This document shows, one piece after another, positions 7,099-31,195 of a stretch of 32,437 nucleotides of DNA (positions within the stretch are counted from its first letter, which is position 1; each line of letters begins with the position of its first letter). The position numbers were made by a program, and so were the translations under genes. The notes below the pieces were generated by a model that did no database searches, was not told where the DNA came from, and saw only the letters and a list, made by a program, of their open reading frames with translations. The DNA comes from a virus, in IMG/VR virus record IMGVR_UViG_3300027985_001168, positions 1 through 32,437 of that record; one strand, written 5' to 3'.

Positions 7099-7497
7099 TT
7101 AATTAACCCTCTCACTCAATTCATCACCAAATCCTGCTGCTATCATGGCGGCGCCTTTATTGGAGTACTTTTCAGCGAGTAGTTCGCTGAGGCGATAAAA
7201 TTCTTTGTAGAGTGTGAAAGTATAAACTTTGTAACGCTTGCGCCCATCGTTGGAGCCTATTGGAGAGCCACGGCCTACGCCCATGTCGAGCATGCGGAGA
7301 TAGTATTTAAATGCAAAGGAGATGAGTGCGGCGTTTCCTCCGGCTTCTGATGTGACTGATTGTTCAAAACTACGGAGCAAATCGCCACTGTAAATGAGGT
7401 TTTTCTGCACAATATTGAACTCCCATTTTTCAATGACTATTTCGGCCCATTTTACCAGGTCGACACTGTACTTGCTATCCTGTAGGTCGATGGTCAT
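7099..7497 (-). CDS. Tail completion-like protein (HK97 gp10-type candidate)
   Basis: A 132-aa protein starting MTIDLQDSKYSVDLVKWAEI. The ATG at 7497 overlaps the upstream stop as TAATG, so the genes are translationally coupled. The 7518 start is therefore not preferred. The features LIYSGDLLRSFEQSV, ALISFAFKYYLRMLDMGVGRG and RKRYKVYTFTLYKEFYRL suit the small basic head-tail joining/neck proteins, in which a helix, a 'SG-L..S' turn and an 'F..KYY..LDMGVG' strand recur. Its position between head and tape measure genes agrees. The family call is by motif impression only. Confidence 0.6.
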   Translation of the reverse strand: MTIDLQDSKYSVDLVKWAEIVIEKWEFNIVQKNLIYSGDLLRSFEQSVTSEAGGNAALISFAFKYYLRMLDMGVGRGSPIGSNDGRKRYKVYTFTLYKEFYRLSELLAEKYSNKGAAMIAAGFGDELSERVN

Positions 7498-7994
7498 TAG
7501 CTGATATTTGGTGCCCAAACATTTTGATTATAGGTGGGCGCGTATTTTTCTTCGTAAGAAATATTAAGCGCCATGCAGTAGAAGTTATCGGCAAAGCGCC
7601 CAATGGTAAACGGACTGATAGCGCGTACTACGTATCCTTTCATTATGGTTTCCTCTCTGATATCGCGCTCGAAGCGTGCATAAATATCGTCGCGGATGGA
7701 ACGTGCCACCAGGCGTGCGGCTTCAATATCCGATTCCTGTATGCGCGAGGCAATATAAAGCGTACCGGTAAGTTGTTGTCTCTTAAAATCTATGTTTGGC
7801 GATGGCAAAGTACCATCGTCGTTGAATTGGCTGATAAGGATATTATCGGAACAATTGCGGAGATTTTTATGAAAATCGGTATCCAACAATATACGAGCAG
7901 AGGCATACTCGCGAAAGAAAGCGGGTGTTTCTTCGGAGTGCTGTATTAATACGTGCTCCTCTGCCAGTGTTTTGAAATAGTTATTTAGGTCCAT
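7497..7994 (-). CDS. Head-tail junction or tail terminator candidate
   Basis: A 165-aa protein starting MDLNNYFKTLAEEHVLIQHS. It has a mixed alpha/beta pattern with a central helix (IQESDIEAARLVARSIRDDI) and C-terminal strands (MALNISYEEKYAP). It is coupled by TAATG to the next gene and overlaps the end of the 36-aa membrane protein upstream. Position and size suit a neck or tail terminator protein of a siphovirus. No family was recognised. Confidence 0.5.
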   Translation of the reverse strand: MDLNNYFKTLAEEHVLIQHSEETPAFFREYASARILLDTDFHKNLRNCSDNILISQFNDDGTLPSPNIDFKRQQLTGTLYIASRIQESDIEAARLVARSIRDDIYARFERDIREETIMKGYVVRAISPFTIGRFADNFYCMALNISYEEKYAPTYNQNVWAPNIS

Positions 7995-8091
7995 TTTTAC
8001 CTTTTTTGTAATTTAAATAAATATTGTAAATAACGTAAATAGCCATTCCAACCACGCAAAGCAGAGCAATTATAGCAGGTGCATCTTTCAT
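7981..8091 (-). CDS. 36-aa single-span membrane protein
   Basis: The ATG at 8091 overlaps the stop of the SiaC-like gene (ATGA). The product is MKDAPAIIALLCVVGMAIYV followed by IYNIYLNYKKGKNGPK: one transmembrane segment (residues ~5-24) and a basic cytoplasmic tail. Its 3' end overlaps the next gene by 14 nt. Both overlaps argue that it is translated. It lies next to another membrane protein (8525-9334). Possibilities include a holin-like or host-envelope factor. Nothing in the sequence decides. Confidence 0.6.
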   Translation of the reverse strand: MKDAPAIIALLCVVGMAIYVIYNIYLNYKKGKNGPK

Positions 8092-8525
8092 TGCCGTACA
8101 ATTAAGTTCACTTTAACCTTTGGATGGCTGTCGCGTATGATCTCGAAATTGGCTTCGTGCTTTTCGTCCTTCTCATCGATATACCAATTAACGGTAGTTT
8201 TGCATTCCGGGTAATGGTCCTGAAAAATTAAGAACATGCCGGTAACATAGCGTGATGAGCCTGAATTGAAATAGTCTATTTCAAATTCAACAATCACATC
8301 CTTTTTATTCGACATGAAAATGTCAATTTCTTCGAGCAATGGAGGCCACAATTTATGAGGGAACTCCGGAATTGCCTTTCCTTTAATGGTGATGGTGGAG
8401 CCATCAAGAATTAGTTTTGGCATATCCTTGTGAGCATCGTTATCACTTTCGCGGATAAGTTTTAATTTATCCTTGCGAGGCGGTTCCGGTTCCTGTTTCT
8501 TAATGAAATAATCTTTCCAGCTCAT
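8088..8525 (-). CDS. SiaC-like (DUF1987) regulatory protein in phage operon
   Basis: This 145-aa protein has, from about residue 35, the pattern of SiaC/DUF1987: PKLILDGSTITIKGKAIPE, then a W-x-PLL-x-x-ID helix, VEFEIDYFNSGSSRY (~81-95), and TTVNWYIDEKDEKHE (~113-127). SiaC proteins are STAS-like partner-switch proteins; in Pseudomonas they bind the diguanylate cyclase SiaD and are phosphorylated on Thr in a YFNT-S-S motif. Here that site reads YFNSGSS, so Ser replaces the phospho-acceptor position. The N-terminal 35 residues are a basic extension. It is coupled by TAATG to the membrane coiled-coil gene, so the two probably act together at the membrane. The family call is by motif recall, without an alignment. 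Confidence 0.65.
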   Translation of the reverse strand: MSWKDYFIKKQEPEPPRKDKLKLIRESDNDAHKDMPKLILDGSTITIKGKAIPEFPHKLWPPLLEEIDIFMSNKKDVIVEFEIDYFNSGSSRYVTGMFLIFQDHYPECKTTVNWYIDEKDEKHEANFEIIRDSHPKVKVNLIVRQ

Positions 8526-9334
8526 TAGTCAAAGTCTTTATAATTTTTGGCAAATCCGCTTTGCTGTCCTGTTGAACCATCCCATTCTTTTAATTCATTC
8601 CAGGTGCCCAACATCTTCATGTAATTGAAGCAGAATAGGTCTACCTGATCAGAAAATAGCTCAAGTATCTCATCGTTTGTTTTTCCATTTATTTCCAGCG
8701 CATCAATCAGCTTTTCGAAGCCGCGGTAAATGTCTCGTTTTACCATGAAATCTTTCAGCTTAACCGGCGTGTTCATGAAATTTTTAATGGATACAAATTC
8801 ACTGTCGAGATAGTTCTCAAACTTGGCCATCATTTCGCGTTTCAATTCGAGCAAAATTTTTTCGCGAAGTCGCTTCGATTGTTTTCGCTGAGGGCTTTTA
8901 AAATAATTATTGGCCAGCTTTTCAATCAGGTTTCCCCAGTAGGATATGACTGATTTATGCTCATCAGGAATCATCGGATTGTCCTTATTGACATTGGCAA
9001 CCACATCGATGGTAACCTTTTTTATATCCTTCTCAAGATAGTCCTCATTCAGATGATTTTGCAGCAGCTTTTCAAAGCGATTCATGGTGTCGTCGTTCTG
9101 AACCTGGCGCTCAATGATGATATTGAATTTTTCATCCAGCTTATTATTCTGTTTTTCCTCGCTTTTCGCAATTTTTTCTTTTAGTTCAATCTCTTTTTTC
9201 TTATTTGAATTGTTTGAAACTGCAATATATATAGGCAATCCAACGCCTCCAATGGTGCCAATAATTGACATGATTACATTGGTGATGGCAATGGCATCGG
9301 TGGATTGTTCGACCAGGAGAATAAGAAATGTCAT
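8525..9334 (-). CDS. Membrane-anchored coiled-coil protein, partner of SiaC-like protein
   Basis: A 269-aa protein. Residues ~10-40 are one long or two short membrane spans (AIAITNVIMSIIGTIGGVGL, PIYIAVS). A charged coiled coil follows (~43-105, KKKEIELKEKIAKSEEK), then a helical domain with basic and acidic patches and a C-terminal tail ending YKDFD. It overlaps the upstream gene by 4 nt (ATGA) and the SiaC-like gene by TAATG, so three genes are chained. Neither a phage structural motif nor an enzyme signature is visible. The pairing with a SiaC-like protein suggests a sensor-like or envelope function rather than a virion part. Confidence 0.6.
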   Translation of the reverse strand: MTFLILLVEQSTDAIAITNVIMSIIGTIGGVGLPIYIAVSNNSNKKKEIELKEKIAKSEEKQNNKLDEKFNIIIERQVQNDDTMNRFEKLLQNHLNEDYLEKDIKKVTIDVVANVNKDNPMIPDEHKSVISYWGNLIEKLANNYFKSPQRKQSKRLREKILLELKREMMAKFENYLDSEFVSIKNFMNTPVKLKDFMVKRDIYRGFEKLIDALEINGKTNDEILELFSDQVDLFCFNYMKMLGTWNELKEWDGSTGQQSGFAKNYKDFD

Positions 9335-10032
9335 GCGCGTTTTTTTTCTACGTTTTTATTAATTATACCCTGTAGGAAGGTCAATGCTTCGTACAGGTTT
9401 GAATTTTTAATAGCTTCATTTTTTGATACATCGTTAAGGTTTAGCGAATTAACCAGCCTGACGAATTCAAGTCCATCGGGTTTTGTTTTGGTTTCTGATT
9501 TGGTGAATACTGCAGGAAATTTTTTCTTAATGAAATTGCTGCACCCATTATAAAATGTCATAATGGCCAGCTTTTCAGCATCAGTCATGGCGCTGATTAT
9601 CTTTTTATTTTCGGCTGGCCCATTAAAATTATACATGGAGTTAATTAGATTGTCCACATCATTCCATTTGCCTGTTTGAATGGAATAAAAATAAGGCTCA
9701 GTCTCGCCAAGGAACTGCGCAAAAGTAAAGTTTGTGAGCGCAGGCTCAGGGCTTTTCATGGCGCCAATATCTCCGAATAAATTGATGGTTAACCAGATAT
9801 CCTGAAAAAGAAAGTTAAGGCACGACATTACGCGAGGCAATGCACCGCCAGGTATGGCCTCCAATTGCTTAAATTTTAATCCTGTAAGATGGCTTAGCAT
9901 CAGAAATTTGCGATAATCTTCGGTAGTTTCGAGCAACTGAATGCGGCAAAACTCAAGCAATTGTTCGCGAGTTAGCTCATTCCATTTTGATGGAAGCAGG
10001 TAAAGGGTTTCGTTGATTTCTAATCTGGTCAT
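9331..10032 (-). CDS. Phage protein of unknown function in head-tail region
   Basis: A 233-aa helical protein starting MTRLEINETLYLLPSKWNEL with 'LTREQLLEFCRIQLLE' and a conserved-looking FPAVFTKSETKTKPDG loop. Both ends overlap neighbours by 4 nt. The pattern (substrate-sized helical protein, 'WNELT..QL' opening) recurs in Bacteroidota phage genomes next to DUF6712 proteins, to my recollection without assigned function. It could be a tail assembly chaperone or a neck protein. Confidence 0.55.
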   Translation of the reverse strand: MTRLEINETLYLLPSKWNELTREQLLEFCRIQLLETTEDYRKFLMLSHLTGLKFKQLEAIPGGALPRVMSCLNFLFQDIWLTINLFGDIGAMKSPEPALTNFTFAQFLGETEPYFYSIQTGKWNDVDNLINSMYNFNGPAENKKIISAMTDAEKLAIMTFYNGCSNFIKKKFPAVFTKSETKTKPDGLEFVRLVNSLNLNDVSKNEAIKNSNLYEALTFLQGIINKNVEKKRA

Positions 10033-10850
10033 TTGAAAACATAAATAGTTTTATCTTGATTGTCCCATCGCTCTATTGGCGTGCCTGACAGGCTGGCTAT
10101 GTAAATTCTTAATTGTTCCAACAGGCTGGTGCCATTTAGCTGGTGCTCTTCACTCTCGAACTTTTTCCCGAAAGCCAGGCAGGCCTCGGCAGGTTTAATC
10201 AGGTCGAGCATGGCCTGTTGTTCAGCTGATGGGCTATCGTCCTGCACGGCTTTTAGTTCGTCGAATACGGTGGCACCCGTTATTTCCTTAATTTTAAGTT
10301 CTATTAGATACATGTTAGCACGCATCTCGAAGAAATCGCGGTTAAGTACCTCGGTGTAAATTAAGTCGTTCATTTCTTTTGCTGTGGAAACAAAGAAAGT
10401 ATTATCGAAAAGATAGGAATAAGTATCAGCAAAAACGGTTTTATTCTCCTGGATAAATAGAATTTGCATTTCCAGAGCATTGTACCCGGAAGAAAAGAAC
10501 TCGCTTTTAATTGAGTTCAACCGCTCATCCGGTAATGGCTGAAGGTTAGAGTTTGAAAACTCCATGATGCCATTCTCTCCTACGTAAATACCGAGGCGCT
10601 TAGTAGCTATAGCGTAGGCAAAATTGGCCAGTGTGCGGCGTGCATAGGTAAGTAGCTCGCTTAAATCTTCGTTGCCTGTGGCTCCATCCTCTACATAATC
10701 GAGCAATGAAATGAAAGTGTTATTGTCCATCCCTTTCAGAACAAACTTGTGCGCTTCAATTAAGTAGGGGTTGATGGTGTCAAATTTTGCAGACACATCC
10801 ACGGTTACATACTCGTGTACTTCTTTTATTGTTGTAAATAACGTTCTCAT
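10029..10850 (-). CDS. DUF6712-like head completion candidate
   Basis: A 273-aa protein from the ATG at 10850 (MRTLFTTIKEVHEYVTVDVS), which overlaps the portal stop as ATGA. The longer frame from 10934 lies inside the portal gene and is rejected. The opening 'TIKEVHEYVTVD...F..INPYLIEAHKFVL' and the mid-protein 'YARRTLANFAYAIATKRLGIYV' match my memory of DUF6712, a helical protein found beside portals in Bacteroidota phages. By position it resembles head completion or adaptor proteins (gp6-like). It is mostly helical with no membrane segment. Confidence 0.65.
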   Translation of the reverse strand: MRTLFTTIKEVHEYVTVDVSAKFDTINPYLIEAHKFVLKGMDNNTFISLLDYVEDGATGNEDLSELLTYARRTLANFAYAIATKRLGIYVGENGIMEFSNSNLQPLPDERLNSIKSEFFSSGYNALEMQILFIQENKTVFADTYSYLFDNTFFVSTAKEMNDLIYTEVLNRDFFEMRANMYLIELKIKEITGATVFDELKAVQDDSPSAEQQAMLDLIKPAEACLAFGKKFESEEHQLNGTSLLEQLRIYIASLSGTPIERWDNQDKTIYVFK

Positions 10851-12226
10851 TGTACAATAGTTTGAGTTTCTTTGCCTTGATCCAAAGTAGTAAGTATAAC
10901 ATCCTGAATGGTAATAACCAGCTGTGGAGGCCACTTGTTAATTTTCTTTACCATTTTCAAAAGGCTATACCATTCGTTACGTGTACGAATGGTAAATGTC
11001 TGATGAATACGGAGTAACTCGCGTTTATCGGAGCCTGATAAATTGGTGTTTGTTTTCGATGGGATTACGGAAATAACATTCGGGTGAACACGAAAAGCGG
11101 TGTAAGTCATGGCGCTCGCCTCCTGGCTATCTTCGTTATACTCACCACCTACCTTGTTATCAATAACATGAATACGGATATCTGGTATGTCTACCTTTCC
11201 ATCTGGTGTCATTTTGAAATAGGTAATGATTGGTTTACCAGCATTTTCCTGACCTGTAAGAAAGTCCTGAATGGCTTTGTATTCAGCTTTTATCCGCTCA
11301 TTTTTCGCATCACGAGTGTTAATACCTTCCTCGGCAAAAATGCGAGGGAAATAATCCATGCTGATTTCAATGTGATATTTCACATTAATCATATTGGTCA
11401 TCAGTGCTTTTTTGAAAACAGGTATTGCATTAGCAAAGTCCAGCCATCCGGATTTAATTATTGAATGCCATGCAGGCATTGGATAGTATTTTCGTGCCGG
11501 GCTGGCAAAACTTATTGGGTAAATGAAGCGCCTTTCTTCTGTAGCGTTTAACTTCCCATCAGTGTATGGCTTAATGCCCATACGTCGCTGTAAATCGAGC
11601 TGAGGTTTTTTGAAATCGAGTACGGGAGTAATTACATAATCGTCGCCATTTGGTTTCTCCCATTTTGCATAGTAGATGTGATTTTTAATCTGGCCTGCAT
11701 CATTCATTTCCTCCCAACGGGAGAATACCATTTCTTTGGTATTTATTTCAGCAATTGCAGTCCCTTTTAAATTTAAAATTAACTCAATAGGGCTGGTTGA
11801 CCACCAGTTAATATCATTAAATGATTCTGATAGTTGTAGGTTTAAGTTATTATCTTCAAAGAATTCTTTTACTTTTCTAAGATTCTCATCGCCTTCCAAT
11901 TCCTCTTCGGTATATTCAACAAATTTGCCTTCAACCATCTGGCCTAATTTGAAGCCGGAACCGTAAACCAAATCAGTTTTAAAATCAAGTAAGGTACTTG
12001 CCACCGGGTTTTTTTCAACTATTTGAATAACATTGTTGGGATAGGTATTATCCGATCCCCACGGGATGAATTTTATACTTTCCTTACTGCCTTGTAATAC
12101 ACGTGGCTGTATATCTTTATCCTCGTAAAAAAAATCCTTTGAGAAGGTGACAGCTGCTTTCGCACCTGGTAAGTATGCTGCCTTTGTTGAGATAATTGCC
12201 TCGGTATCGTTGTTATTTATTTCCAT
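10847..12226 (-). CDS. Phage portal protein
   Basis: A 459-aa protein that would form the dodecameric DNA gate at the capsid vertex. Visible portal-like features: KFIPWGSDNTYPNNVIQIVE near residue 50-70, NPVASTLLDFKTDLVYGSGF (~72-91), a mixed alpha/beta stem, and a C-terminal QTFTIRTRNEWYSLLKMVKK segment. Length and position (right after terminase and an 80-aa protein) agree. It ends with an ATGA overlap to the DUF6712-like gene and begins with a TAATG overlap, so packaging and portal genes are one operon. The family is the divergent Bacteroidota phage portal group, inferred by synteny and composition. Confidence 0.75.
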   Translation of the reverse strand: MEINNNDTEAIISTKAAYLPGAKAAVTFSKDFFYEDKDIQPRVLQGSKESIKFIPWGSDNTYPNNVIQIVEKNPVASTLLDFKTDLVYGSGFKLGQMVEGKFVEYTEEELEGDENLRKVKEFFEDNNLNLQLSESFNDINWWSTSPIELILNLKGTAIAEINTKEMVFSRWEEMNDAGQIKNHIYYAKWEKPNGDDYVITPVLDFKKPQLDLQRRMGIKPYTDGKLNATEERRFIYPISFASPARKYYPMPAWHSIIKSGWLDFANAIPVFKKALMTNMINVKYHIEISMDYFPRIFAEEGINTRDAKNERIKAEYKAIQDFLTGQENAGKPIITYFKMTPDGKVDIPDIRIHVIDNKVGGEYNEDSQEASAMTYTAFRVHPNVISVIPSKTNTNLSGSDKRELLRIHQTFTIRTRNEWYSLLKMVKKINKWPPQLVITIQDVILTTLDQGKETQTIVQ

Positions 12227-12731: not shown

Positions 12732-14369
12732 TTACATCTTCATGCTTGTGCTGATGCCTGACGCTATATGGTCTGACCTATAGATGCTACAACCAATATA
12801 AAGAGTATCCCATGCATCAGTGATATGTGTACGTTTTTCAACAGGATCATCCTCTGAGTCTGGTAACTTCTCGTCACGCTTATCTTTACCCCATCCATTT
12901 GATGTGATAATAGTTGTAGTCTTTTCCATTGCATCAATTAGGTCAGCGCAATTATGTCTATTGAATAATGGCTTAAGATTCTTTTGTCCTTTCATTCCCT
13001 GGTCTATCTCCTTATGCTTAAGGTTGTGCTCCATTGCATTACCTATGTAAACAGCAAATACATTCCATCCTTTGGCCGTAAGTACTCTGATAATTGTCTC
13101 ATTGAATCTTTCTGTACTTATCCCAGATCTTCCTTGTAGAAATGTATGGTCAAAATAGAAAACTATATTCCTGTGTGGTAATGGCTGATAGTATTCTGAT
13201 AATTCCTCACATACTTCTGGAAGCATACGCCCGCCTTTTACCTGGAATACATTGATGGTTCTCAATAATCCTTTTGAATAATCAGGCTGCCCCACCACTA
13301 TTCCATTAACTGCAATATTGGTATCACATCCAATATACAATGGCTGAGATAAGTTAATATCCACATCCTGTTTACAATTAAACTTTGTGCGGCTCGCTTC
13401 CTCGTAATTAATTGAGCCATCGCTCTTACGAAAACGCTCCAGGAAAGTAATATCATAAGCAGAATAATATAGTTTTTCGGATAAGGCACCGTAAAATCCT
13501 CCCTCAGTAAACTTTAATTTATAAGACATTATTGAAGTTAAAAACTTGCTCAATGGCAAATCGCGATATCTGTCTTTTACATATTGCTCTCCAACAACTT
13601 CAAGGTTTTCAAGTATTGAGAAATAAACAAATAAAATTGCTTCCTTCCTGAAAAAAGCAATTTCATTCTCCATTTCTTTAATTCTTTTCCTGTAATGAAG
13701 ACTATCCGTGCTGATTTGTTTTAAATTGTACAATTCAACAATCAATCCTTCCAATACTTCAATGATGGTTTTATCCATCTGCTTTTCCTTATTCAGCAAC
13801 CAAAGGCCTGATTTTGCCGTTGGCATATCAGATACATAAGTCTGTGAACCATCCCACGGGCAGTTTTGGAAATAAACCATTGGTGTTATTGCCGGCAATG
13901 TTTCATCTATCAATTTAGGCTCGCTTAATGTTTTTGCCTCATCGGCAATTACTGAGCTCAATGATAATGAATTGGAAGAATAAGGCACATCCTGCGAAAT
14001 AATTGGTGTTACGCTTCCATTGTACCAATGTATATAATGACTCCAGTCTTTTGGCTCAATATATGGCAAAGAAAAACCCATCTTATCAGGGGCTTTTCTT
14101 CCAACAAAATAGTGCATTCCTTCATTATATCCTAACCTTTTTAGCGCATGCAAAATGCCCGGAATAGTTCTGGTAAGTGCCTGCTTGTAAGTAGAAGCGA
14201 TAAAAGCATGCTGACCGCGTGGCATTTGCTGAATATTTCGCAAAAGTGTAGGCATGATAATACCCTCTGTTTTTCCCAAACGCCTGGAAGCAATTACATA
14301 TAAAATACGCACAGACAAAGCCATAAGGTACTGTTGTGCCCGATTGAAATAAACCTCTTTAGTCTTCAT
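12732..14369 (-). CDS. terL: Terminase large subunit
   Basis: A 545-aa ATP-driven DNA packaging motor with nuclease. The Walker A-like motif is SRRLGKTEG (28-36). Walker B is SSVIADEAK (138-146) with acidic D143-E144. The C-terminal RNase H-like nuclease shows YIGCDTN (D349), FYFDHT (D407) and a closing THITDAWDTLYIG. The divergent Walker A (RRLGKT rather than GxxGxGKT) is normal for terminases. It overlaps the small subunit by 11 nt and is followed by a terminator. The residues between 215 and 260 form a helical insertion. The call is firm. Confidence 0.9.
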   Translation of the reverse strand: MKTKEVYFNRAQQYLMALSVRILYVIASRRLGKTEGIIMPTLLRNIQQMPRGQHAFIASTYKQALTRTIPGILHALKRLGYNEGMHYFVGRKAPDKMGFSLPYIEPKDWSHYIHWYNGSVTPIISQDVPYSSNSLSLSSVIADEAKTLSEPKLIDETLPAITPMVYFQNCPWDGSQTYVSDMPTAKSGLWLLNKEKQMDKTIIEVLEGLIVELYNLKQISTDSLHYRKRIKEMENEIAFFRKEAILFVYFSILENLEVVGEQYVKDRYRDLPLSKFLTSIMSYKLKFTEGGFYGALSEKLYYSAYDITFLERFRKSDGSINYEEASRTKFNCKQDVDINLSQPLYIGCDTNIAVNGIVVGQPDYSKGLLRTINVFQVKGGRMLPEVCEELSEYYQPLPHRNIVFYFDHTFLQGRSGISTERFNETIIRVLTAKGWNVFAVYIGNAMEHNLKHKEIDQGMKGQKNLKPLFNRHNCADLIDAMEKTTTIITSNGWGKDKRDEKLPDSEDDPVEKRTHITDAWDTLYIGCSIYRSDHIASGISTSMKM

Positions 14370-15837: not shown

Positions 15838-17238
15838 CTAAATGAATGAATTTAATACCTCTGTCTGAAAACTATCATTCCGTGAGCAATTTGCGTAAAT
15901 AGTATCTGCATGGTTAATACTTTTCGACATCTTTATCCAGTTGGCACGGTGTTTAATAGCCATTACAGGTACATTCAGCGCTTTGGCCTTCTTTCCTGCC
16001 CAAATATCAGCCATGTTCGACGCCTCAAAATCCTTTATGGCAAATTGAATGGCATCAGTATGATAGGCCATCACTCCGGTTCCGGGAATATCAACCTCAA
16101 CATCTTTAGTTTGATTATACATGCATCCAATTTTCACCTCCGCACTACGGTAATAACTTACAGCCGGTTTTTTAATAAATTTTCGACCATGAAAGGAAAT
16201 GACTGCCTTTTTATCATAATATAAAATAGCTTCAATTGCCTTTTTTACATAATCTTTCGGATAAATAATATCATCATCAGTGGTAAGGTGATATCCTTCA
16301 ATTAATTGAGCTTTATAAAATTTCCCTGCATCTCCCAAATCGCCAATTTCCTCAGCAGAATGATAAAAAGTAATTTTAGGATGAAATAGAAAATCAGGTG
16401 TGTAGGTAAAATTATTAAGGTATATCCACAACTCATCTACCTGGTTAATCAGTGAATTTACCACCTCTTTTAATGAATCAATGCGCGAAGGTATTGCTGC
16501 CATTGTTGCCGTCACTTTTTCGTGATTTGTAATGAGCGGGTGATTAATTCTTTCGGTTGGGTGCATCTTACTTTCATGATTACCATGTATAAGCAGGCTC
16601 TTTGCTATCTGGTAAATTGAATGTCCTGAATTAATTATTTCTCTTGACAATTGTGCTCCAACTCCTGAGCTTAGTTGCTTATTTACCTGGTACATGCGCT
16701 CAACCTGGTATACTGAATAATCAATAATTTCAAAAAACCGCTTTTTAGCCATAAAACACATATCAATCCATCCTGTGGAATATACAGGATTGCCATTGAA
16801 GTATACAATTTTAGGCTGTGTGCCGGTCCAGCACGATGTGTTTATCCTCGAATAATCATTCAGCAGATTCAGGCAGCTTAATTTTTCATCTTTTATCGCC
16901 TCCCATTGTGTTATAGCTTTATGAATAAAACCATCTACTATCTGCACATCATCAGGTATCATCATAAAATAATCAAACGAATGATTTTTTACCTCATTAA
17001 AGGCAGCATTAACCAACTTCCAGTAATTTTCACGGCCTCCGTTTTCTTCATTTTTAAAATAATCAAATAGGAAGTTTTTAGTCAGGTATTTATGAATTTC
17101 GTCATAATTTTCTGTGGAGCAATCATCAAAAATCAATAAATGAAGTTTTTTTGAGTAAACATCTTCATTCAGTTCCTGTAAAAGTCTTAACAAACTCTCT
17201 GGTCTGTTGTAGGTGGTAATTAATACAAGTATTTTCAT
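15838..17238 (-). CDS. Tandem family-2-like glycosyltransferase
   Basis: A 466-aa protein with two GT-A-like domains. Domain 1 opens MKILVLITTYNRPESLL with FDDCS (37-41) and a DDV dyad (MMIPDDVQIV, ~92-101). Domain 2 begins near residue 244 (TATMAAIPSRIDSLKEVVNS) and has a D-x-D-like TTDDDIIYP at about 318-326. Such enzymes transfer sugars from nucleotide-sugars. In phages they decorate virion proteins, DNA or host surface polysaccharide. It sits between the head module and terminase with a terminator just upstream (17252-17275), so it is separately expressed. No membrane segment is seen, so it acts in the cytoplasm. The acceptor is unknown; modification of the capsid or of a surface receptor are the main options. 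Confidence 0.8.
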   Translation of the reverse strand: MKILVLITTYNRPESLLRLLQELNEDVYSKKLHLLIFDDCSTENYDEIHKYLTKNFLFDYFKNEENGGRENYWKLVNAAFNEVKNHSFDYFMMIPDDVQIVDGFIHKAITQWEAIKDEKLSCLNLLNDYSRINTSCWTGTQPKIVYFNGNPVYSTGWIDMCFMAKKRFFEIIDYSVYQVERMYQVNKQLSSGVGAQLSREIINSGHSIYQIAKSLLIHGNHESKMHPTERINHPLITNHEKVTATMAAIPSRIDSLKEVVNSLINQVDELWIYLNNFTYTPDFLFHPKITFYHSAEEIGDLGDAGKFYKAQLIEGYHLTTDDDIIYPKDYVKKAIEAILYYDKKAVISFHGRKFIKKPAVSYYRSAEVKIGCMYNQTKDVEVDIPGTGVMAYHTDAIQFAIKDFEASNMADIWAGKKAKALNVPVMAIKHRANWIKMSKSINHADTIYANCSRNDSFQTEVLNSFI

Positions 17239-22377: not shown

Positions 22378-23295
22378 GTTATAAGTAATTGCTACCATTC
22401 CGTTTCAAATGGAGTTTCGGGCGAAAAACTTTTATTAAAATCTTCCAACCGCACTTTAATTTTTTCAAAATTATTTGGTTCTAATTCCATCGTTATAAAT
22501 TGCCTGTTGGTTCTTAAACAAACTTCTGCCGTTGTTCCGCTTCCGCCAAAAGGGTCTAAAATTAATTGTCCTTCATTGCTCGATGCTAACACCAAATCAG
22601 TAATAATTGAAAGTGGTTTTTGGTCACGGTGTCCTGTGCGTTCTTTTGATAAGTGTCCGAGCAATGCTGGTCTTTCAATTACATCTCTTGGTAAAGCACC
22701 TTTTGAAGTATCATAAGCACTGCATTTATCCATTCTACCGCTTGATGGTCTTATTCTACCATTCAGTTTCTTTGTGCTTTCGTTGTATTCAACTCTTACT
22801 GCATCTTCATTAAAAATTGAATTACCTCTATATCCGTAAATTATTGGTTGCATACTCATTCTCCATCTACCCTTTGGTTTTGGTGAATTTTTGTAGTGCC
22901 AAATAAGTAATTCCTTTTTATCAATTTTCATTTGAGAAAACCAATGTTCAGCAATCATATTCTTATTTCCAAAAACATAAATTGAACCATCTTTACTCAA
23001 ACATCTAAGCATTTCTGCAAAGTATGGTTTCATATCTTCAATTTCGTATGGTGGGTCTGTTACGACTAAATCCACACTACCTGTTGGTATCAGTTTCATC
23101 AGTTCTAAACAATCACCAAATAATAATTTTCTTTTTCCTTCGCTCATTTTAATAAAAGTTTTTTTCGTTCTCCATATTTAAGTTTATGCTAAATAAACCG
23201 CAACTACTTATAACACGGTATATAAGCAAGTTTGCCATTAAGTTTATCGGTAATTTGAAACATTCTGTAAGGCAAACCTGCTCATATACACCACC
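22378..23295 (+). mobile_element. attC-like gene cassette C1 (array 2)
   Basis: It begins GTTATAAGTA (22378-22387). It holds a DNA methyltransferase gene on the minus strand and closes with TACTTATAAC (23205-23214) plus a palindrome to the GTT at 23296. The complementarity of the two ends is exactly 10 nt. The flanking sequence ACAGAT on the left is not palindromic, so this is the array's outer junction. Confidence 0.7.
22392..23147 (-). CDS. Orphan DNA methyltransferase (beta class) of cassette C1
   Basis: A 251-aa enzyme transferring a methyl group from SAM to DNA amino groups. The catalytic motif IV is TDPPYEI (30-36). Motif I, DPFGGSGTTAEVC, comes near the C-terminus (~195-207). That order, IV before I, defines the beta class of N4-cytosine/N6-adenine enzymes. 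GHLSKERTGHRDQKPLSI lies between them. No restriction nuclease is next to it, so protection of phage DNA from host restriction is the likely role. The stop codon is 14 nt from the crossover GTT. The start ATG at 23147 is 58 nt inside the palindrome's opening box, and the leader contains no other gene. Confidence 0.85.
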   Translation of the reverse strand: MSEGKRKLLFGDCLELMKLIPTGSVDLVVTDPPYEIEDMKPYFAEMLRCLSKDGSIYVFGNKNMIAEHWFSQMKIDKKELLIWHYKNSPKPKGRWRMSMQPIIYGYRGNSIFNEDAVRVEYNESTKKLNGRIRPSSGRMDKCSAYDTSKGALPRDVIERPALLGHLSKERTGHRDQKPLSIITDLVLASSNEGQLILDPFGGSGTTAEVCLRTNRQFITMELEPNNFEKIKVRLEDFNKSFSPETPFETEW

Positions 23296-23302: not shown

Positions 23303-23963
23303 CCCATTTAAGAAGCCTTCGATATAACCTCAAATGTAATTTGATTTGGGAGTATTCCATTGCAAACATACACACTTGAAAACGGAGGGTTTAAGCTCGG
23401 TTTTGGGTCTGTATAGCTTTTAAAATAGCTTATTCGTTTATCAAAGTACATTATTTCAAACTTGTTTTCTTTAAATAAATTGAAACGTTTTGCACTTTCA
23501 AATAAGCCAACTACACCAACAAGCATTGCAAAAGGTTTACCTATTTCAAATAGTTTTTTAAACACTTCAAATTTAAGACTGTAAGGTGGGTTTGAAATAA
23601 TGTAATCGCATTGTGGCACTTCCATTTCAAAAAAATCAAATCCATTTTCAATGTGCGTATTTAAAACCTTATGTCCTTGTGCTACTAATAGTTTCACAAA
23701 ATTACTATCTGTTGTATCAAATGGACACCATACATTACTATTCGGTTTTAAATATTTTAGCAATGGAATTATTGCATAGTTTGGTGTATAAAACTCGTCA
23801 TTTGGGTTTATTTCGCCTTGTCGTTCAGCTTTGTTTGTAATTAAATCAAATTTCATAAAATAAAGAATAAAAACGGGGCATAACACAGGCTATATGCAAT
23901 TGCCCAATTAAGTTTAGTGCAGTATTTAAAGTTTTTACAAGGGCTACTGCACATAGCCCTAAC
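23296..23963 (+). mobile_element. attC-like gene cassette C2 (array 2)
   Basis: It begins GTTATGCCCC (23296-23305) and closes with GGGGCATAAC (23875-23884) and a palindrome to the GTT at 23964. The 10-nt match is perfect and ends there. It holds one minus-strand methyltransferase-like gene. Confidence 0.7.
23308..23856 (-). CDS. N6-adenine-methyltransferase-like protein of cassette C2
   Basis: A 182-aa protein from the ATG at 23856 (MKFDLITNKAERQGEINPND). The frame extends to a GTG at 23886, but that lies in the crossover box. Motif IV, SNPPYSLKFEV, is clear (~89-99). A degenerate motif I (SNVWCPFDTTDSNFVKLL) is near residues 38-55, with a conserved F-Y-T-P-N-Y opening. This is the small class I methyltransferase group common in phages and cassettes, often labelled N6-adenine-DNA or RNA methyltransferase. 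The substrate is unproven. The stop is 12 nt from the crossover GTT. Confidence 0.75.
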   Translation of the reverse strand: MKFDLITNKAERQGEINPNDEFYTPNYAIIPLLKYLKPNSNVWCPFDTTDSNFVKLLVAQGHKVLNTHIENGFDFFEMEVPQCDYIISNPPYSLKFEVFKKLFEIGKPFAMLVGVVGLFESAKRFNLFKENKFEIMYFDKRISYFKSYTDPKPSLNPPFSSVYVCNGILPNQITFEVISKAS

Positions 23964-30382: not shown

Positions 30383-31195
30383 TTAATTAAAATATTGTTT
30401 TAAACCCTTAATCCCTTTCAATTTCCTGATCGCTGATTCTTTAATTTGTCTCGCGCGCTCTCGTGTCAGTCCTATGTTTTCGCCAATTTCTTCGAGCGAA
30501 ATGGCCAGGCAGCCAATGCCAAAACTATTCCTGATAACATAGGCCTCGCGACTGCTTAGTCTGGTCATGAAAAGGCTTAGAAAAACATCGTGTAATTCAC
30601 CATTGAGCAGCTCCTTATCCTCGTCACCAGGGCGATAATTGGTCAAAATATCTTCTAAGGTGTCATTTTCTCCCATCTCATCGCTCAGATGGCGGGCAAC
30701 ATAACTAAATTCAACATGCTCAATATTGTATATGTCAGACAAATCCCCATTTTGGATTTTCTGATTGATTACCTCGTTTTTCCTGTTGTTAATCGAAATT
30801 TCGGAGCGCTTATTTTGCGGAAGGCGAATACTGTGCTTATTTGCCAGCTCCACATTAATCGACTGACGTATCCACCATACGGCATACGAAATAAACTTAA
30901 AACCACGGCTGGGGTCAAATCGCCTGGCTGCTTCAATAATGCCAAGGTTACCGGCCTGAATAAGGTCCTGCAGTTCAACACTCGGATCGAGGTATTGTTT
31001 GGCAACAGATACCACAAAGCGCAAATTTGCCTTAATCAAGCGCTCAGTTGCCTTCTGGTCTCCATTTTTTGAGAGCTCTGCCAGTTCAACCTCTTCCTCC
31101 ACAGTCAGCAATTCATATTTGCTGATATCAGAAAAGTATTTTGTAACCGACTCCCGGCGCTCTGTTATTCTATTTGTAATTTTAATATCTCTCAT
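30383..31195 (-). CDS. Phage-encoded primary-type sigma-70 factor
   Basis: A 270-aa sigma factor that would redirect host RNA polymerase. Region 1.2/2 is clear: KYELLTVEEEVELAELSKNG (27-46), KANLRFVVSVAKQYL (~58-72), DLIQAGNLGIIEAARRF (~79-95), RGFKFISYAVWWIRQSI (~98-114). Region 4 ends SLEEIGENIGLTRERARQIK (~233-252), like Bacteroidota RpoD. Between residues 130 and 200 the sequence is divergent and short compared with region 3. The N-terminus lacks the RpoD region 1.1. The close match to Bacteroidota primary sigma suggests capture from a host. Early genes or the late promoter in 21671-22140 are likely targets. Confidence 0.9.
   Translation of the reverse strand: MRDIKITNRITERRESVTKYFSDISKYELLTVEEEVELAELSKNGDQKATERLIKANLRFVVSVAKQYLDPSVELQDLIQAGNLGIIEAARRFDPSRGFKFISYAVWWIRQSINVELANKHSIRLPQNKRSEISINNRKNEVINQKIQNGDLSDIYNIEHVEFSYVARHLSDEMGENDTLEDILTNYRPGDEDKELLNGELHDVFLSLFMTRLSSREAYVIRNSFGIGCLAISLEEIGENIGLTRERARQIKESAIRKLKGIKGLKQYFN

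What the first reader, a model, noticed from the sequence alone, without database searches (positions are those of the whole stretch)
8088..9334. SiaC-like protein coupled to a membrane coiled-coil protein in the morphogenesis operon
The 145-aa protein matches the SiaC/DUF1987 pattern, known from bacterial stress and c-di-GMP partner-switch control. The phospho-acceptor region YFNTSS reads YFNSGSS. It is joined by TAATG to a membrane-anchored coiled-coil gene and by ATGA to a 36-aa membrane protein. Such a trio has no obvious virion role. It could rewire host biofilm or stress signalling, or block superinfection.
Basis: partly seen in the sequence, partly recalled or inferred. Interest (0 to 1): 0.72.

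Follow-up and report, generated by a model that had tools for sequence, protein, structure and literature searches.

The report
Phage membrane-anchor and SiaC gene pair
A bacteriophage carries a true but divergent member of a bacterial signalling-switch family (SiaC), coupled by gene order to a membrane-anchored stalk protein; the same two-gene module sits in an otherwise unrelated phage, so it looks like a portable tool for acting on the host cell rather than a part of the virus particle.

Summary
The 145-aa product (8088-8525, minus) is a genuine SiaC-family protein (PF09345, 64.9 bits against a cut-off of 24.5). It is translationally coupled to a single-TM, C-in, helical-stalk protein (269 aa) and to a 36-aa TM ORF.

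(1) A probably complete phage with unrelated head, packaging and tail genes (G400/L090) carries the same pair in the same order: a TM-stalk protein (23% identity, homology confirmed by shuffling) overlapping a SiaC (37%), beside attP/integrase. The two SiaCs form a 100/98-supported clade. The 36-aa gene is not shared, so the unit is a pair, not a trio. (2) The insertion point is an accessory-gene site: in terminase relatives the flanking genes abut directly in 21 of 26 contigs; 5 others carry unrelated cargo there, including a KAP NTPase of candidate-defence family PDC-S20 and a HicA toxin.

No SiaA-, SiaB- or GGDEF-type domain was found in nine SiaC-bearing viral records. Ser at the acceptor position is ordinary. 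Best explanation: a host-acting membrane effector in which SiaC docks on its partner's cytoplasmic stalk, as SiaC does on SiaD. Docking and output are inferred; c-di-GMP rewiring is neither supported nor excluded.

The parts
8525..9334 (-). 269-aa membrane-anchored stalk protein, partner of the SiaC-like protein
   Evidence: ORF; one TM window at residues 21-39 with 0 K/R in the 15 residues before and 5 after, so N-out/C-in; homolog in G400/L090:730-1527, 23% over 262 aa, 0 of 1500 local-composition shuffles reach the score; no informative family match in Pfam, PHROGs, NCBIfam or PADLOC
9218..9274 (-). single transmembrane segment of the 269-aa protein (residues 21-39)
   Evidence: Kyte-Doolittle mean 1.94 over 19 residues
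8984..9208 (-). Pro/Gly-poor, highly charged helical stalk (about residues 43-117), the proposed docking site for the SiaC-like protein
   Evidence: composition and periodicity computed for residues 43-110; docking inferred from the SiaC-SiaD stalk structure (PMC8457831)
8582..8983 (-). conserved C-terminal helical domain (about residues 118-251)
   Evidence: the part from residue 106 on, by itself, exceeds all 1500 shuffles against the G400 copy (score 99, shuffle mean 38, sd 8); AF2 model mostly helical but low confidence, pLDDT 45
8088..8525 (-). 145-aa SiaC-family (PF09345/DUF1987) protein
   Evidence: 64.9 bits, cut-off 24.5; AF2 model mean pLDDT 82, core above 90, SiaC-like strand/helix order; G400 copy 37% identical; clade 100/98 with the G400 copy
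8262..8264 (-). codon of Ser88, equivalent to the phospho-acceptor Thr68 of Pseudomonas SiaC
   Evidence: alignments; Ser88 precedes helix 90-103 in the model, matching T68 at the N-terminus of helix alpha2 (PMC7647112)
7981..8091 (-). 36-aa single-TM ORF, probably real but not part of the conserved unit
   Evidence: TM window mean 2.42; fills the 93-bp gap before the 165-aa gene; absent from G400
9331..10032 (-). 233-aa gene, upstream border of the accessory site (conserved gene next to the DUF6712 adaptor)
   Evidence: found in 48 ORFs of relatives by iterated profile
7497..7994 (-). 165-aa gene, downstream border of the accessory site
   Evidence: its homolog abuts the 233-aa homolog directly in 21 of 26 related contigs

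Best explanation
The two genes at 8088-9334 are an accessory, portable two-protein membrane module rather than a virion part. The 269-aa protein sits in the inner membrane with its helical stalk and C-terminal domain in the cytoplasm. The SiaC-like protein docks on that stalk through its N-S-x-S loop and helix alpha2, as Pseudomonas SiaC docks between the parallel stalk helices of SiaD, and thereby sets the oligomeric state and activity of the membrane protein. Ser88 could be phosphorylated by a host SiaB-like kinase, which would release the SiaC and link the switch to host physiology. The likely output is on the infected cell (membrane state, exclusion of competitors, or lysis timing), not on the particle. 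Shown: family identity, conserved pairing in two unrelated phages, accessory-site location, no SiaA-, SiaB- or GGDEF-type domain found in the viral records; topology is predicted. Inferred: stalk docking, phospho-control, and the output.
For: SiaC family hit. Same pair, same order, overlapping genes in G400, in which profiles of the window's terminase, portal, adaptor, neck and tape-measure genes find nothing. Homology of the partner confirmed by shuffling. Joint clade of the two SiaCs at 100/98 with shared residues A51, F55 and W60, rare or absent in cellular SiaCs. In G400 the pair lies between the late genes and attP/integrase and ends in a terminator-like hairpin. In the window it lies between two genes whose homologs abut directly in 21 of 26 related contigs, where 5 others carry unrelated cargo including PDC-S20 KAP NTPase (535 bits) and HicA (58.6 bits). 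C-in topology puts the stalk in the same compartment as SiaC. The SiaC-SiaD structure shows docking on parallel stalk helices, blocked by T68 phosphorylation, and its authors propose that DUF1987 proteins modulate adjacent proteins (PMC8457831). Other viral SiaCs are also followed by a TM protein (L170-L174 by ATGA overlap, L169).
Against: The pair is known in only two phages; scans of viral contigs, phages and plasmids gave no third, though the pattern-based scans have limited sensitivity. The window copy has no obvious promoter of its own: it is coupled to both structural neighbours, so it may be made late, when exclusion is less useful. Stalk periodicity is weak. The partner's structure could not be modelled (pLDDT 45) and complex prediction was not possible. 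No output domain is recognisable.
Confidence: 0.5

Rival explanations
1. Host-signalling decoy: the phage SiaC competes with the host's own SiaC proteins for SiaB kinase, SiaA phosphatase or SiaD-like effectors, and the membrane partner only localises it. The effect would be altered c-di-GMP, biofilm or stress output.
For: Bacteroidota genomes are rich in SiaC systems, up to 42 SiaC matches in one Microscilla genome, with SiaB immediately upstream of 47 of 89 SiaC hits. The phage protein keeps a phosphorylatable residue and the invariant E54, Y85, N87 and W114. No cognate kinase, phosphatase or cyclase domain in nine viral records, so any partner of that kind would be the host's.
Against: Does not explain why a specific, co-inherited stalk protein is kept beside it in two unrelated phages. 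The phage SiaC is divergent at positions conserved in cells (51, 55, 60). Host unknown; the SiaC ortholog model is missed by far (29 against 150 bits).
Confidence: 0.2
2. Structural or assembly role: the pair is part of the neck/tail module, for example a membrane-tethered assembly scaffold or an ejected internal protein.
For: Lies inside the portal-to-tape-measure operon and is coupled by overlaps to both neighbours.
Against: No homologs found in terminase relatives, whose flanking genes mostly abut directly. The unrelated phage G400 keeps the pair outside its head-tail block. The pair bears a TM anchor and a signalling-family domain.
Confidence: 0.13
3. Lysis component: the TM-stalk protein is a spanin- or holin-like protein and the SiaC its regulator.
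For: Weak PHROG Rz-like spanin match (E=0.021); no endolysin, holin or spanin recognised elsewhere in the window among the genes scanned; tiny TM ORF adjacent.
Against: Positive-inside pattern gives C-in topology in both copies, opposite to an i-spanin. A cytosolic SiaC could not reach a periplasmic coil. The PHROG score is near chance level.
Confidence: 0.08
4. Transcription switch: the SiaC (STAS-like, related in fold to anti-sigma antagonists) and its membrane partner control the phage's own sigma-70 factor at 30383-31195.
For: The window encodes a full sigma factor, above cut-off in only 1 of 30 records searched; G400 has a weak sigma region-2-like ORF two genes upstream of its pair (14.6 bits, below cut-off). 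SiaC resembles anti-sigma antagonists (PMC7647112).
Against: No anti-sigma (HATPase) partner seen; the G400 match is below cut-off; two cases only; the genes are 21 kb apart in the window.
Confidence: 0.05

Closest known systems
SiaC of Pseudomonas aeruginosa (DUF1987, PDB 6K4F/6KKO/7E6G; SiaABCD partner switch)
   Same: PF09345 domain above cut-off; invariant E/Y/N/W residues; phosphorylatable residue at the T68 position, just before helix alpha2; gene adjacent to a protein with a helical stalk
   Different: No SiaA-, SiaB- or GGDEF-type domain found in the phage record; far below the SiaC ortholog cut-off (29.3 against 150 bits); about 35-residue low-confidence N-terminal extension; partner has a TM anchor and no GGDEF domain
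SiaC-SiaD stalk complex (PMC8457831)
   Same: SiaC-type protein next to a protein with an extended cytoplasmic helical stalk
   Different: Binding not shown here; partner membrane-anchored; no cyclase; the SiaD binding-motif residues are not recognisable in the partner sequence by eye
Phage G400 (IMGVR_UViG_3300027985_001029) two-gene module
   Same: Same gene order, overlapping genes, homologous partner and SiaC
   Different: Unrelated phage backbone; located beside attP/integrase; no 36-aa ORF; SiaC lacks the N-terminal extension
Phage accessory ('moron') genes at the portal-tail junction of related Bacteroidota phages, e.g. MT835542 (KAP NTPase PDC-S20)
   Same: Same insertion point between homologous flanking genes
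   Different: Cargo unrelated in sequence; other cargos include antisense genes, whereas this pair is co-directional and coupled

Membership tests
SiaC / DUF1987 (PF09345) superfamily | Profile score over the curated Pfam cut-off | tested here: met
   64.9 bits against 24.5, residues 36-142
SiaC / DUF1987 (PF09345) superfamily | Invariant residues E54, Y85, N87, W114 (window numbering) | tested here: met
   All four present; each 74/74 in distinct cellular SiaCs
SiaC / DUF1987 (PF09345) superfamily | Phosphorylatable residue at the T68 position, N-terminus of alpha2 | tested here: met
   Ser88; T 60/74, S 14/74 in cells; helix 90-103 follows in the model
SiaC / DUF1987 (PF09345) superfamily | STAS-like alpha/beta fold | tested here: inconclusive
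   AF2 model pLDDT 82 with matching strand/helix order; fold search could not be run
SiaC sensu stricto (NCBIfam NF038265 equivalog, SiaABCD) | Score over the equivalog cut-off | tested here: not met
   29.3 against 150 bits
SiaC sensu stricto (NCBIfam NF038265 equivalog, SiaABCD) | Encoded with SiaB kinase, SiaA (SpoIIE) phosphatase and SiaD (GGDEF) | tested here: not met
   No PF19788, PF07228 or PF00990 match in the window or in the eight other SiaC-bearing viral records
SiaC sensu stricto (NCBIfam NF038265 equivalog, SiaABCD) | Activates a diguanylate cyclase; is phosphorylated by SiaB | not testable with these tools
   needs biochemistry
Known anti-phage defence families (PADLOC) | Convincing match of either protein to a defence model | tested here: not met
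   No match for SiaC; only weak helical-region matches for the 269-aa protein, best E=0.0012 at 15 bits
i-spanin (Rz-like) | N-in anchor with periplasmic coil | tested here: not met
   Positive charges only after the TM segment in both copies, i.e. C-in by prediction
Conserved neck/tail protein of this phage group | Present in relatives at the same place | tested here: not met
   No homolog in 80 terminase relatives (many partial contigs) by tblastn; flanking genes abut in 21 of 26 contigs holding both

The most novel reading that the evidence does not exclude
Bacteriophages carry a previously undescribed two-protein membrane switch in which an orphan, phage-specific SiaC clade controls a dedicated membrane stalk protein. 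It would be the first phage-encoded SiaC partner-switch system known to this search, used against the host or competing phages.
Probability: 0.35. Interest if true: 0.75.

Novelty: new variant of a known kind. Interest (0 to 1): 0.56.

Why it matters
SiaC proteins are known as switches in bacterial partner-switch signalling, and Bacteroidota genomes can hold dozens with unknown targets. A phage module that strips the system down to SiaC plus one membrane partner would give a minimal test bed for the proposal that DUF1987 proteins generally modulate the neighbouring gene product. It would also show phages using this signalling fold. The held literature has no paper that mentions both DUF1987 and phage. 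The mapped accessory site gives a place to look for more host-acting genes in these Bacteroidota phages.

Tried and rejected
Single-protein scans of viral and genome contigs with the SiaC, terminase and portal proteins returned no relatives; alignment-based queries were needed. Searching 395 Bacteroidota genomes for the partner and about 1,190 genome searches with the phage-type SiaC gave only ordinary-scoring cellular SiaCs (63 bits at most). The nearest cellular SiaCs in the tree (tandem genes in G821) lie among chromosomal genes without a stalk partner. Spanin identity was rejected on predicted topology. A shared 'KKG' end of small TM ORFs before the 165-aa gene in L002, L038 and L039 was considered as homology to the 36-aa ORF, but in the window those codons (AAAAAAGG) sit just before the next start codon and look like its ribosome-binding site, so no homology is claimed. 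Promoter and terminator scans were at chance level. The partner's AF2 model was too poor to use. Solved-structure profile searches identified neither border gene. A notebook count of six cargo-bearing relatives was corrected to five.

Full report
What was checked. The window is a whole IMG/VR virus record of 32,437 bases. The genes of the packaging and morphogenesis region all read on the minus strand: S49-type protease, capsid, terminase (12732-14369), portal (10847-12226), DUF6712 adaptor (10029-10934), a 233-aa gene, the 269-aa, 145-aa and 36-aa genes of the finding, then 165-aa, 139-aa and 291-aa genes and a tape measure. The three genes of the finding are real and coupled as described. 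ATGA also joins the first of them to the 233-aa gene, and the 36-aa ORF overlaps the 165-aa gene by 14 bp.

Family. The 145-aa protein matches Pfam SiaC (PF09345) at 64.9 bits against a cut-off of 24.5. It scores only 29.3 against the ortholog-level SiaC model, whose cut-off is 150, so it belongs to the superfamily but is not an ortholog of the biofilm protein. It keeps the four invariant residues, and the acceptor position is Ser88, found as Ser in 14 and Thr in 60 of 74 distinct cellular SiaCs. An AlphaFold2 model with 42 sequences has mean pLDDT 82 and a core above 90. Its elements run strand, strand, helix, strand, helix, strand, helix, strand, and Ser88 lies just before the second core helix, as T68 lies at the N-terminus of alpha2 in the crystal structure (PMC7647112). 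A profile of the same alignment finds Pseudomonas SiaC structures at E=3e-32. The fold comparison itself could not be run.

The partner. The 269-aa protein has one TM segment (residues 21-39) with no positive charge before it and five K/R just after it, so the stalk and C-terminal domain should be cytosolic; the G400 copy shows the same pattern. The stalk is charged and free of Pro/Gly over residues 43-110, but heptad periodicity is weak, so 'coiled coil' is a reasonable guess rather than a result. No family library gave an informative match.

A second phage carries the same pair. An alignment of the window SiaC with two Bacteroidota SiaCs found one clearly close viral relative: IMGVR_UViG_3300027985_001029 (L090, G400, 31,225 bp). 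Its first bases recur at position 31167 near its end, which suggests a complete circular genome, although IMG/VR completeness is not given. There a 265-aa protein homologous to the partner overlaps by 4 bp a 123-aa SiaC that is 37% identical to the window's. Because coiled sequences can align by composition, the partner match was tested against 1500 shuffles that preserve local composition. None reached the score for the full length, nor for the C-terminal part alone. Window terminase, portal, adaptor, neck and tape-measure profiles find nothing in G400, so the backbones are unrelated. In G400 the pair is followed by a terminator-like hairpin, a tRNA-like att sequence (read by eye) and the integrase, and has no third small TM gene. 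The two SiaCs form a clade at 100/98 on a long stem and share A51, F55 and W60, which are rare or absent in cells.

An accessory site. With an alignment of terminases, 80 related viral loci were fetched. None encodes the SiaC or its partner by tblastn, though many are partial contigs. Iterated profiles of the flanking genes show that the 233-aa and 165-aa homologs abut directly (gap -17 to +18 bp) in 21 of 26 contigs that hold both. Five others (L002, L026, L038, L039, L042) carry 1.9-6.5 kb of unrelated genes at that junction. Near-duplicate contigs reduce this to about 18 and 5. Flank orthology is remote (13-30% identity) but consistent with synteny. The cargo includes a KAP NTPase matching PADLOC candidate family PDC-S20 at 535 bits in MT835542 and a HicA toxin in L039. 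The window pair is therefore cargo at a recurrent accessory site. It differs from most other cargo in being co-directional and translationally coupled, so it is probably expressed with the late genes.

Other viral SiaCs. A broader scan found SiaC in further viral contigs: a group (L169-L174) in which SiaC is followed by a small TM protein (ATGA overlap in L170-L174), a 166-kb contig (L175) and very large contigs (L176, L177). None of nine such records, the window included, encodes a SiaB-type kinase, a SpoIIE phosphatase or a GGDEF domain, although some records are fragments. In cells SiaB lies immediately upstream of SiaC in 47 of 89 hits, a count whose denominator includes the viral ones. 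Viral SiaCs are thus orphans, and some are coupled to membrane proteins.

Mechanism. In Pseudomonas, SiaC binds the helical stalk of SiaD, with T68 inserted between two parallel stalk helices and phosphorylation preventing binding. The authors suggest that DUF1987 proteins commonly modulate adjacent proteins (PMC8457831). The window pair has the matching anatomy: a SiaC beside a protein with a cytosolic stalk. I therefore commit to stalk docking as the mechanism, with the output at the host membrane. Docking, phospho-control and output are inferences; confidence is about 0.5 for the whole statement and higher (about 0.8) for 'accessory, host-acting pair'. The decoy reading (c-di-GMP or biofilm) stays possible at about 0.2, the virion reading at about 0.13.

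Verdict. The finding is real and somewhat more interesting than reported, because the pair recurs in an unrelated phage. It is a new variant built on a known family, with only two members and an undetermined output.

Noticed in passing
window 30383-31195 (-): Full sigma-70 factor (regions 1.2, 2 and 4) encoded by the phage; above cut-off in only 1 of 30 records searched. G400, the other carrier of the pair, has a weak sigma region-2-like ORF two genes upstream of its pair.
   Followed up: partly
window 15838-17238 (-): Family-2 glycosyltransferase inside the capsid/terminase region; homologs sit at the same place in several related contigs (L010, L013-L015, L019, L020).
   Followed up: no
window 22392-23147 and 23308-23886 (-): N6/N4 DNA methylase and a weaker EcoRI-type adenine methylase match, close together.
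   Followed up: no
L170-L174 and L169: Viral contigs with a SiaC-family gene followed by a TM protein (128 aa by ATGA overlap; 62 aa in L169): another viral SiaC-plus-membrane pairing, on a different SiaC branch.
   Followed up: partly
G004 (genome of L124): A Microscilla genome with 42 SiaC-family matches, suggesting massive expansion of this signalling family.
   Followed up: no
L133:4447-5292: A Bacteroidales protein made of two SiaC domains in tandem.
   Followed up: no
L002:27398-28804 (MT835542): KAP NTPase of PADLOC candidate defence family PDC-S20 (535 bits) at the same accessory site, next to TM proteins and a DEDDh exonuclease.
   Followed up: partly
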